Assembly: GCA_020055655.1 (NCBI GenBank)
Contig: JAIPUR010000015.1
Location: forward strand, 1 to 59,650
DNA: 59,650 nucleotides
Reading direction: 5' to 3'
Origin: Methanosarcinaceae archaeon
Lineage (GTDB): Archaea > Halobacteriota > Methanosarcinia > Methanosarcinales > Methanosarcinaceae
The notes beneath the pieces were generated by a model. It saw only the letters and a list, made by a program, of their open reading frames with translations. It had not been told where the DNA came from and ran no database searches. Shown piece by piece: positions 4,868 through 58,158 of this stretch; positions within the stretch are counted from its first letter, which is position 1; each line of letters opens with the position of its first letter. The position numbers and the translations under genes are program-made.

Positions 4868-5719
4868 TTACATTGTTCGAAGACGTTTGATACGCTCTTC
4901 TGTTGCAGGATGCGTCCTGAAAAGCTTCATGATCGAAGTTCCTTTTAGTGGGTTGACTATGAACATATGAGCAGTGTGCTGTGATGCCTGTACATCTCCT
5001 CTTCTTGGTCTGTACTGTGCACTTCCATATTCCAATTTTTCAAGAGCACTTGCAAGTGCCCATGGCTTCTGTGAAATACGTGCTCCTTCTACATCTGCTG
5101 CAAATTCTCTTGATCTTGATATTGCAAGTTGGATTATCGTAGCTGTCAGAGGTGCTATTACTGCCATAGCTATAAACCCGACAATATTGTTACTATCGTC
5201 TCTTCCACCTATACCGCCAAATATCGCTGCCCATCTGGCCCATGTTGCGAGCATGGTGATTACACCTGCAATGGTTGCTGCCACTGCACTGATAAGTGTG
5301 TCACGGTTCTTGACATGTCCAAGCTCATGTGCCAGTACACCTTCAAGTTCTTCTGCTGTAAGCAGATCAAGTATTCCTGATGTTGCAGCTACTGCTGCAT
5401 GTTGTGGGTCTCTGCCAGTTGCAAATGCATTTGGCATGGACGTATTAACAATATATACTTTTGGCATTGGAAGATTTGCACGCATTGCCAGCTTCTGTAC
5501 AATTCCATAAAGCTCAGGTGCTTCTGCTGATGAAACTTCCTGTGCCTTATACATTTTAAGAACGATCTTATCACTGTACCAGTAACTACCAAAGTTCATG
5601 ACAATTGCGAAAACAAATGCAAGTATCATTCCTGTAGTACCACCAATCATTTGTCCTACAATGACCAGGAGTCCAGTAAGTGATGCTAGCAATAAAGTGG
5701 TCTTTATCATATTTCCCAT
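4868..5719 (-). CDS. htpX: Membrane zinc metalloprotease HtpX (M48B)
   Basis: A 283-residue M48 peptidase that degrades misfolded membrane proteins. Two N-terminal membrane helices (about residues 6-45) precede the zinc motif HELGH at 131-135. Two more helices follow, and then SRSREFAAD, with the third zinc ligand Glu at about 205. The C-terminal MFIVNPL and [11 protein letters not shown] segments are typical of HtpX. The start is set at the ATG at 5719, which has GAGG upstream; a longer ORF from 5764 lacks a site and would place basic residues before the first helix. A distant non-catalytic relative is encoded at 56197-57078. Confidence 0.95.
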
Positions 5720-52731: not shown

Positions 52732-52752
52732 GAGTAAGTTATTTACTTACTC
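52732..52752 (-). terminator. Terminator of the PEF-CTERM gene
   Basis: GAGTAAGT / ACTTACTC (8 bp, 5-base loop) overlaps the stop of the PEF-CTERM gene and is followed on the minus strand by ATCTTTATTTCTTTTTTT. Confidence 0.75.
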
Positions 52753-53253
52753 TTCCTTGCGGCGCTGGAAGAAGAATGCCAGGCCGAGTATTGCAGCTAC
52801 TGGGAGTGCAATGGTTGGGAATTCAGGGATAAGGAAGTTTCTTGCAGCTGATCCTACGTCCTTACTTACTGCATCTTGGCCTGCACCAATGGTTACTCTC
52901 CACTGGCCTGTCACAGGTGCACTTGCATTGAGTGTTACCTGGATTACTCCTACATCTGTAGCAGGGTCTGCTGTTCCTGGCTCAAAGTTAGTGTTACTAA
53001 CTACAACTGTCATATCTGAAGCTGCTGCCCCACCGCCAACTGCAACTACATCAGTAAAGTATGGCAAAGTCTGGTTCTCTGCAGCAAAACCCATTCCATG
53101 GTAGCTGAATGTAAGTGTCTGACCTGGTTTGATAACTATTGGATTTGGTGCTGATGCTGTTCCTGCTTCATTCCATATGGCTGCATTATATGCAGATGCT
53201 GAACCTGCCATTGCAATAAAAGCGATTATTGCTATTACTAATAATTTCTTCAT
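52747..53253 (-). CDS. PEF-CTERM surface protein
   Basis: A 168-residue exported protein with a signal peptide (MKKLLVIAIIAFIAMAGSASA), a small beta domain rich in Ala, Thr and Val (about 22-138), and the tripartite C-terminal sorting signal PEF (143-145) in FLIPEFPTIALP, then a hydrophobic helix (about 147-161) and a basic tail QRRKEE. PEF-CTERM signals are recognised and removed by archaeosortases, leaving the protein anchored to a lipid or released. AAGGTGGT precedes the ATG and a TATA box lies at 53312-53322. An archaeosortase gene is 4 kb away. Confidence 0.9.
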   Translation of the reverse strand: MKKLLVIAIIAFIAMAGSASAYNAAIWNEAGTASAPNPIVIKPGQTLTFSYHGMGFAAENQTLPYFTDVVAVGGGAAASDMTVVVSNTNFEPGTADPATDVGVIQVTLNASAPVTGQWRVTIGAGQDAVSKDVGSAARNFLIPEFPTIALPVAAILGLAFFFQRRKEE

Positions 53254-56196: not shown

Positions 56197-57078
56197 GTGT
56201 GCAGAGGGATCATTATTAAAAACAAGCTTCTCGTATTTCTAATACTTGCTTTGCCTTCTATTTTGCTGGCTTTACCGGTGTTCTATTTCGTGGGTGTTCC
56301 TGCAGGGATAGTCACTCTTGTAGTTCTTGCGTTTATTGACTGGAAGATCTATCGTTCATCTGGCTGGATAATTCTCAAATGGTATCACTGTCAAGCAATG
56401 CCTCTTGGTGAATATGCCAATGTTCACTCTACGCTTTATACGTTTTCAGAAAAGGTATCCATACGCCTCCCAAAACCATTCATATTTGAATCCATGGTTC
56501 CTGTTATATTTTCAGTGGGTACTGATAATTCTTCTAAGATAGTGATGTCAAGGGGCTTGATCGAACTACTGGATGAAAAGGAATTGGAGTCCGTTATTGC
56601 AAGGGAGATTGCACGGATATCTGAAAGTGGTATGGCCCAAAACACATTCATATCTATGCTGGCAGGCACTGTGGCATCGCTTGCCACAGCTGCCTTATGG
56701 ATGTCCCTGCTTGGCGGCTTTGGCCAGGAGGATGACCCTGCTCCAAGGTTCATACGATTTGTGGCAATGGGGCTTGTAATGCTTCCCGCAGCATTGCTGG
56801 TGTATCTTGGGAGTCGTGATCAGGTGTAGAGTTCCGATGCAAAGGCAGTCAGTATATTGGGAAGAAAGGATGATCTTGTATCTGCTTTGAATAAAATAGA
56901 TACTGAAATACGCCTTCATTCGCTTGAATATTTCAATCCGGCTCATGCCCAGCTCTTTGTGGTGAATCCTGTAAAGGTAAATTCCCTTTACGATATCCAT
57001 CTTTCTCTGTTTGTGGCAAAGCCTGACATGAAACATCGTTTGATGGTATTGGACAATACCGGGACAACACTTGATTGA
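56197..57078 (+). CDS. Non-catalytic M48 (HtpX-like) membrane protein with in-frame UAG
   Basis: Read through TAG codon 211 (56827-56829), the frame gives 293 residues aligned end to end with HtpX: two N-terminal helices, SVGTDNSSKIVMSRGLIELL, ELESVIAREIARI (HELGH replaced by REIAR), two more helices, then GSRDQV-TAG-SSDAKAVSIL matching [13 protein letters not shown], and LFVVNPVKVNSL near the end. The zinc ligands are all gone, so it is not a protease. TAG sits where relatives have Phe or Tyr. It may be pyrrolysine, or a nonsense mutation. The start is GTG. A small membrane protein gene follows 9 bases after the final TGA. Confidence 0.72.
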
Positions 57079-57087
57079 GGTAGAAAC

Positions 57088-57324
57088 ATGTTCTCAGAAA
57101 TACACTACTACTTTACAATTCTTAAGGATTGGCAAAAGGCGCTTTTCTTCAGTTTCGTGTCCTACTCATTCGTCCTTTTCGGGATAATTGTGGCAATTAC
57201 GTTCATACTGAAGGATTTCAAGTTCCTGCTGGTATTGGGTTTGAGCTTTGTGTATATGGGCTCAGTCATTGCAGCAATGCTGGTTGCGAGAAAGATATTC
57301 AAAAAAAGGTTGATAGAACAGTAA
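57088..57324 (+). CDS. Small membrane protein, 78 residues
   Basis: A short protein with two membrane helices (about 18-42 and 47-67) and a basic C-terminus (ARKIFKKRLIEQ). I do not recognise a family. GAGGTAG is 6 bases before the ATG, and only 9 bases separate it from the M48-like gene, so expression of both depends on the same transcript. It is convergent with the archaeosortase gene. Confidence 0.7.
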   Translation: MFSEIHYYFTILKDWQKALFFSFVSYSFVLFGIIVAITFILKDFKFLLVLGLSFVYMGSVIAAMLVARKIFKKRLIEQ

Positions 57325-57333
57325 TTGTTCTAT

Positions 57334-58158
57334 CTATTTCCTGTTCATGATATACATTATTATGCCAGCCGTCAGAGCAAATATCATCCAGCCAATATGT
57401 GTGTGTACCATCATCATTGTATCCATGCCGTACAGGTATGCTGTGATGTAAAGGATCACGACCCTGACAAGGTTGGCAATATATGCCACAAGTACTGCAA
57501 ATCCCAGGAGCTGGAATGATCTCTTAGCATCCATCTTTTCTATTCTGGAGTACCCGGCTACGATACCTATGAGCAGGAACATGGAATAGAGTCCAGAGCA
57601 TGGTCCGCCTATGACGATGGTCATGGGCTCTGCACCGTAGAGTATCACAGTCTCGGTGGCTATGATCTCCACCGGGATGCCCAGTACCTTTATGATAGCA
57701 ACCGTGGGCATAAGGACCATGTAATGGTCGAAGAGGTGTAGGAAGTCGATATTGAAAAAACCGAAGGCAGAATAAAATATGAGATACAGGGTAGTAAAGA
57801 CGGACGAGATGTAGAAACCAAACTCTCCAAGTTGTCGGATATCCTTTTTATTGGTTCCCATTGCAATAAGGGAAGCTCCCACAAAGAATGCCATGGAGTC
57901 AAGAGTGCCAATATCACTTTCGTTGACAAAGTTGTATATGAGGTTTGCAGCAACTATGAAACCACCTATCAGGAGGTAGCTCCTGGAGCTCTTTATTCCT
58001 TCATTTCCGGTCAGCTCCATCCTGGTGATCAGCAGTGCTGCCAGAACAAAGAGTACTATTCCCACAACTGTGGACCCTTCACTAAGCTCGATGGTGGCTC
58101 CGGTGAAGAGTGCAAGCACCAGAAGAATAATGGCTATGTTTTTCTTTTCACTGTACAT
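57334..58158 (-). CDS. Archaeosortase (exosortase family), candidate processor of PEF-CTERM proteins
   Basis: A 274-residue membrane protein with about eight helices. The exosortase/archaeosortase active site is visible: Cys187 in IGGPCSGLYSM, Arg232 in IANLVRVVIL and His254 in VHTHIGW. These cysteine transpeptidase-like enzymes cut C-terminal sorting signals such as PEF-CTERM. The N-terminal four helices are a family extension. It belongs to the branch expected for PEF-CTERM (ArtC type), but the subtype is inferred from the neighbouring substrate. TATA at about 58188. Stop TAG. Confidence 0.9.
   Translation of the reverse strand: MYSEKKNIAIILLVLALFTGATIELSEGSTVVGIVLFVLAALLITRMELTGNEGIKSSRSYLLIGGFIVAANLIYNFVNESDIGTLDSMAFFVGASLIAMGTNKKDIRQLGEFGFYISSVFTTLYLIFYSAFGFFNIDFLHLFDHYMVLMPTVAIIKVLGIPVEIIATETVILYGAEPMTIVIGGPCSGLYSMFLLIGIVAGYSRIEKMDAKRSFQLLGFAVLVAYIANLVRVVILYITAYLYGMDTMMMVHTHIGWMIFALTAGIIMYIMNRK

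What the first reader, a model, noticed from the sequence alone, without database searches (positions are those of the whole stretch)
56197..57078. In-frame UAG in a non-catalytic HtpX-like protein of the archaeosortase region
Codon 211 is TAG at the place where HtpX proteins have the aromatic residue of REF/REY-x-AD. The frame continues for 82 codons that align with the HtpX C-terminus (SSDAKAVSIL, LFVVNPV), with no other disruption. Methanosarcinaceae can decode UAG as pyrrolysine. All three zinc ligands are also lost (HELGH to REIAR, Glu to Val), so this is a pseudo-protease that may have a new role, possibly with Pyl at the former active-site edge. The competing explanation is a recent nonsense mutation (TAC/TAT to TAG).
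Basis: partly seen in the sequence, partly recalled or inferred. Interest (0 to 1): 0.8.

Follow-up and report, generated by a model that had tools for sequence, protein, structure and literature searches.

The report
Amber codon in archaeosortase-linked dead protease
A Methanolobus archaeon that can insert the 22nd amino acid pyrrolysine has one 'stop' codon in the middle of an otherwise intact, catalytically dead protease-like gene of its protein-sorting locus; the codon is probably a chance mutation that the cell partly reads through, and the gene also appears to start at an unusual, conserved AUU codon.

Summary
In detail: TAG at 56827-56829 interrupts an M48/HtpX-like frame that otherwise runs to 57078. 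The genome (Methanolobus) carries pylS-pylB-pylC-pylD and a pylT-like tRNA gene. Its mtmB, mtbB and mttB genes have in-frame TAG, yet TAG also ends about 13% of genes in a one-third sample, so UAG is ambiguous. The target is the only non-methyltransferase in that sample found with a Pfam domain spanning TAG. None of 17 Methanolobus orthologues has TAG there; they have Leu, Ser, Phe or Val, with Leu in the closest. The codon is therefore lineage-specific and one base from TTG or TCG. Sequence after TAG is as conserved as before it, so the mutation is either recent or read through. Best reading: a near-neutral amber codon partly decoded as pyrrolysine, as in M. acetivorans Thg1, with no evidence of a pyrrolysine role. 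The zinc ligands are lost across the genus, with purifying selection between close orthologues. The gene co-occurs (37 of 39) and usually adjoins archaeosortase C. Unexpected: SD + 7-8 nt + AUU/AUC/AUA replaces AUG in all 18 Methanolobus copies, so translation probably starts at 56215 and not at GTG 56197.

The parts
56204..56207 (+). Shine-Dalgarno core GAGG, 7 nt before the ATT; 7 nt is the commonest GAGG-to-start spacing in this genome sample
56215..56217 (+). probable initiation codon ATT (AUU), conserved as ATT/ATC/ATA in orthologues
56215..57078 (+). M48/HtpX-like pseudo-protease frame with one internal TAG
56602..56616 (+). former HExxH, now REIAR
56824..56826 (+). codon aligned with the third zinc ligand (Glu), now Val (GTG)
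56827..56829 (+). in-frame amber codon TAG; orthologues carry TTA/TTG/CTA, TCA, TTC or GTC
57088..57324 (+). small membrane protein TM78 (ATG start); its SD overlaps the TGA stop of the pseudo-protease; matches the sequence just downstream of, or the C-terminal extension of, the M48 protein in other genera
57334..58158 (-). archaeosortase C (ArtC)
   Evidence: TIGR03762, 349.9 bits
53375..56074 (-). DUF1616 membrane protein, divergent neighbour
   Evidence: PF07760; conserved next to orthologues
52747..53253 (-). PEF-CTERM protein, likely ArtC substrate
   Evidence: TIGR03024, 43 bits

Best explanation
The gene encodes a membrane pseudo-protease of the M48/HtpX fold that works with archaeosortase C, probably as a scaffold or substrate-handling subunit. 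In this one Methanolobus lineage a single-base change (most simply Leu TTG or Ser TCG to TAG) created an in-frame amber codon. Because the cell makes Pyl-tRNA with a CUA anticodon and nothing is known to restrict it to particular genes, ribosomes at this UAG partly insert pyrrolysine and partly terminate, so a minority of full-length protein carries Pyl at a tolerant position at the start of a helix. The Pyl residue has no selected role; the codon is a near-neutral passenger, as in Thg1 of M. acetivorans. Shown: the codon, the Pyl genes, the dual use of UAG, the old loss of zinc ligands, the link to ArtC, the unrelaxed C-terminal sequence. Inferred: the read-through itself, its level, and the scaffold function.
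For: pylS 398.9 bits and pylS-B-C-D in a row (PylB, C and D named by operon order and sequence); pylT full length at 90% identity. MtmB, MtbB and MttB domains span TAG in this genome. TAG also ends conserved genes such as L18e, KARI and TrpD, 94 of 706 genes in the sample. [quoted passage not shown] Post-TAG identity to the nearest orthologue is 0.57 against 0.52 before TAG; branch ratio C/N 0.89, bootstrap 0.39-1.53. Closest orthologues L020-L022 have Leu TTA/TTG at the codon. The gene is the only ArtC-linked M48 copy in G000, and ArtC, TM78, DUF1616 and nine PEF-CTERM genes are intact. The AlphaFold model (pLDDT 88) shows the residue at the N end of helix 204-215, with further helices after it that truncation would remove.
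Against: No protein or ribosome-profiling data. One genome only; its UAG could be a very recent mutation or an assembly error. G000 departs from two C-terminal positions invariant in the other Methanolobus copies (for example NPGH to NPAH), although the N part departs at a similar rate (3 of 31 against 2 of 15). No special downstream RNA structure favours Pyl insertion (z 0.09), but none is thought to be required.
Confidence: 0.6

Rival explanations
1. A recent loss-of-function nonsense mutation: UAG terminates nearly all ribosomes, the truncated protein is useless, and the gene is on its way out; the C-terminal part looks conserved only because there has been no time to decay.
For: UAG unique to this genome among 18 Methanolobus orthologues; TAG is a normal stop in this genome. 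ArtC without this partner occurs in G005, so loss may be tolerated. A second, accessory gene with an in-frame TAG in the sample (L128) also looks shortened compared with its only orthologue.
Against: Read-through in a pyl-proficient archaeon is expected to be substantial (PMC2933860). No decay marks; all partner genes intact. No comparable deep-internal TAA or TGA in 469 aligned genes, so fresh pseudogenes are rare here.
Confidence: 0.27
2. A sequencing or assembly error, or strain mixture, at one base.
For: Draft assembly of 48 contigs, single genome, one-base difference from a sense codon.
Against: Completeness 99.9%, contamination 0.9%; no other comparable error seen in 469 aligned genes.
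Confidence: 0.08
3. Pyl (or regulated UAG read-through) is functionally used here, so that the ArtC partner is made in full only when Pyl-tRNA is abundant, for example on methylamines.
For: Single ArtC-linked copy; the AUU start already suggests that the gene is kept at low translation; Pyl decoding is tied to methylamine use.
Against: UAG not conserved in any orthologue; the position varies; no conserved element around it.
Confidence: 0.05

Closest known systems
Thg1 of Methanosarcina acetivorans (in-frame amber read as Pyl, not essential for activity)
   Same: Non-methyltransferase gene in a Pyl-decoding methanogen; UAG in one species only; orthologues have a sense codon (PMC2933860)
   Different: Pyl was physically observed in Thg1; here translation is untested, and the host protein is a pseudo-protease
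Methylamine methyltransferases MtmB/MtbB/MttB
   Same: In-frame TAG read through in a complete domain, present in this genome
   Different: There the UAG is conserved and Pyl is thought to take part in catalysis; here it is neither conserved nor near an active catalytic site
HtpX / M48B zinc proteases
   Same: Family match and topology; predicted fold matches the HtpX domain 3cqb and ZMPSTE24/Ste24p
   Different: HExxH and Glu ligand lost across Methanolobus; in a locus with archaeosortase C
AUU-initiated bacterial genes (infC, pcnB; from general knowledge)
   Same: AUU after an SD, conserved, expected to keep translation low or make it depend on initiation fidelity
   Different: Here archaeal; AUU/AUC/AUA interchange; gene not known to be autoregulated

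Membership tests
Pyrrolysine-containing protein | Complete Pyl system in the genome | tested here: met
   pylS, pylB, pylC, pylD in a row and pylT 7 kb away on the same contig
Pyrrolysine-containing protein | In-frame UAG within a continuous homologous frame | tested here: met
   PF01435 match spans TAG; C part as conserved as N part
Pyrrolysine-containing protein | UAG position conserved in orthologues | tested here: not met
   0 of 17 Methanolobus orthologues and none of the other relatives aligned
Pyrrolysine-containing protein | Pyl detected in the protein | not testable with these tools
   needs mass spectrometry
Catalytic HtpX/M48 protease | HExxH plus distal Glu zinc ligands | tested here: not met
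   REIAR and Val; the first His and the Glu are lost in all 18 Methanolobus copies, the second His kept only in L029
M48/HtpX fold | Family profile and structure match | tested here: met
   PF01435 42 bits; Foldseek to 3cqb (E 1.3e-3, prob 1.00) and 2ypt (E 8.6e-4); profile to 3cqb E 2.9e-14
Archaeosortase C system component | Co-occurrence and neighbourhood with ArtC | tested here: met
   37 of 39 ArtC genomes have it, 3 have it without ArtC, of 112; Fisher p about 1e-23 not corrected for phylogeny; 32 of 37 within 10 kb
Archaeosortase C system component | Required for PEF-CTERM processing | not testable with these tools
   needs a knockout

The most novel reading that the evidence does not exclude
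The archaeosortase C partner is doubly gated at translation in this lineage: a conserved AUU start limits initiation, and the newly acquired UAG makes full-length protein depend on Pyl-tRNA, coupling surface-protein sorting to methylamine growth.
Probability: 0.05. Interest if true: 0.85.

Novelty: new member of a known kind. Interest (0 to 1): 0.45.

Why it matters
It offers a second, easily tested case (after Thg1) of how a Pyl-decoding archaeon lets amber codons drift into ordinary genes, which bears on how ambiguous codes evolve. The locus itself adds two points: a catalytically dead HtpX relative tied to archaeosortase C, and a conserved AUU/AUC/AUA initiation codon in place of AUG across Methanolobus and some related genera. 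The latter is unusual for archaea as far as I know; two library searches found no report, but they were narrow.

Tried and rejected
Whole-genome reassignment of UAG to Pyl: rejected, TAG ends 13% of genes here and 12% in G003, including L18e, KARI and TrpD with complete neighbours. Relaxed selection after the TAG: not seen. Other TAG-interrupted conserved genes: candidates proved to be adjacent genes, the TrpD/TrpF overlap or a 5' leader. TAA/TGA control: 0 of 10 tested cases had a domain across the stop. Rfam match or special fold after the UAG: none. GTG 56197 as start: disfavoured, no SD, and several orthologues have a TGA just upstream of the SD-linked Ile codon. Searches failed on inputs; one search used a wrong accession; the TM78 query was out of frame and was redone.

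Full report
What is there. The frame 56197-57078 contains one stop, TAG at 56827-56829, and continues 82 codons to TGA 57076-57078. The M48 profile matches across it: 42.0 bits with read-through and 28.7 without, and NCBIfam HtpX models likewise run to residue 286-288. An AlphaFold model built from the window protein (Pyl as Lys) and 27 relatives has mean pLDDT 88. It matches the HtpX domain 3cqb and ZMPSTE24/Ste24p; the overlay on full-length ZMPSTE24 is loose (TM 0.44). The UAG residue falls at the first turns of helix 204-215 (numbered from the ATT), after the last long helix, probably membrane-spanning; truncation would remove several helices.

Organism and code. Relatives place the genome in Methanolobus (record titles; the window's own record is not named). 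It has pylS (398.9 bits) followed by pylB, pylC and pylD (the last three named by operon order and sequence, not by a profile) and a pylT match at 90% identity over all 72 bases. In a sample of 829 kb, a third of the genome, crude gene calls end in TAA 331, TGA 281 and TAG 94 times. Ten TAG codons are followed by at least 50 coding-like in-frame codons. Three are MtmB, MtbB and MttB with the domain across the TAG; five join genes or end complete families (L18e then L13, KARI then nitroreductase, an Na/H exchanger then a P-type ATPase, inositol-1-phosphate synthase, and a frame leading into a tetrapyrrole methylase); one is an accessory protein without Pfam match; one is the target. So UAG is a normal stop and a Pyl codon in the same genome, as published for M. 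acetivorans, where an amber-containing reporter was read through at 20-30% (PMC2933860).

Is the interruption unusual? Proteins called from 1.2 Mb of a congener (G003) were aligned to the sample: 469 good matches, about 153,000 aligned positions. The target is the only deep internal stop in a convincingly aligned gene; the remaining stops listed are, on inspection, upstream over-extensions, gene ends or antisense ORFs. Of ten TAA/TGA cases scanned with Pfam none had a domain crossing the stop. One event cannot show that TAG is enriched over other nonsense codons.

History of the codon. All 17 other Methanolobus orthologues have a sense codon: Leu TTA/TTG/CTA, Ser TCA, Phe TTC or Val GTC; the nearest three have Leu. 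TAG is one base from TTG or TCG. The aromatic residue of the catalytic family had thus probably gone before the UAG arose. After the TAG, G000 is 57% identical to its nearest orthologue, before it 52%. The G000 branch is not longer in the C part (ratio 0.89 relative to the tree, bootstrap 5-95% 0.39-1.53). If unconstrained protein change runs about six times faster (omega about 0.17 for the G000-L020 pair, with saturated dS), the C part can have been free of constraint for at most roughly a tenth of the branch. So the TAG is recent or is read through.

Pseudo-protease. The first His and the Glu ligand are lost in all 18 Methanolobus copies, the second His in 17, while relatives in other genera keep HEIGH and REY/REF (L037, L038, L045, L046) or have lost only the first His (several g16 copies). 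Close Methanolobus pairs of inactive copies show dN/dS of about 0.13-0.33, so the inactive protein is under selection. The gene occurs in 37 of 39 family genomes with ArtC and in 3 without (112 genomes; Fisher p about 1e-23, not corrected for phylogeny) and lies within 10 kb of artC in 32 of 37. The neighbours DUF1616, the small membrane protein TM78 and ArtC are conserved. I infer a non-catalytic partner of archaeosortase C. G000 keeps nine PEF-CTERM genes, so the system appears to be in use.

A second, unlooked-for feature: the start codon. In the Methanolobus copies a GAGG is followed, 7 nt later (8 in L021), by an in-frame ATT, ATC or ATA, at the place where L038 (another genus) has ATG with the same spacing. 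Seven nt is the commonest GAGG-to-start spacing in this genome sample (34 of 143 genes). Several copies have TGA just upstream, and some have no canonical start for 30-50 codons (L027, L028). Codon periodicity begins at this codon: upstream mismatch rates are 0.41/0.47/0.41 by position, downstream 0.19/0.07/0.24. Only 3 of 496 long genes in the sample lacked an SD-linked canonical start but had this arrangement, all well inside the frame. This supports conserved non-AUG initiation, at 56215 in the window; a few copies (L030-L032, L034, L036, L037, L039) also have a nearby ATG, so it is strongest for the others.

Verdict. The codon is present in the assembly, and it very probably yields some Pyl-containing protein if the gene is expressed while Pyl-tRNA is present. 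It is most simply a near-neutral or recent change and not evidence of a new Pyl function. Sequence alone cannot separate partial read-through from a fresh inactivating mutation.

Noticed in passing
56204-56217; orthologues L019-L048: Conserved SD plus 7-8 nt plus ATT/ATC/ATA in place of ATG: probable conserved non-AUG initiation in an archaeal gene across Methanolobus and some related genera.
   Followed up: yes
57088-57324: Small membrane protein TM78, about 70-78% identical in the nearer Methanolobus copies; similar sequence follows the M48 gene in other genera and appears as its C-terminal extension in L037, L045 and L046. Its SD overlaps the TGA of the upstream gene, suggesting translational coupling.
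   Followed up: partly
genomes: An M48 subfamily co-occurs almost perfectly with archaeosortase C in Methanosarcinaceae, usually as a neighbour, with stepwise loss of the zinc ligands.
   Followed up: yes
L128 (G000:C4:31024-31728): Accessory gene with an in-frame TAG; its orthologue in G016 (L129) has a sense codon, 58% identity and a longer frame, so this copy may be decaying.
   Followed up: partly
G000:C4:10081-10152 and L049: pylT lies about 7 kb from pylS, on the other strand, with methyltransferase genes nearby, instead of directly before pylS.
   Followed up: no
window 4871-5527: A second M48 gene, canonical HtpX with HELGH, in the same window.
   Followed up: no
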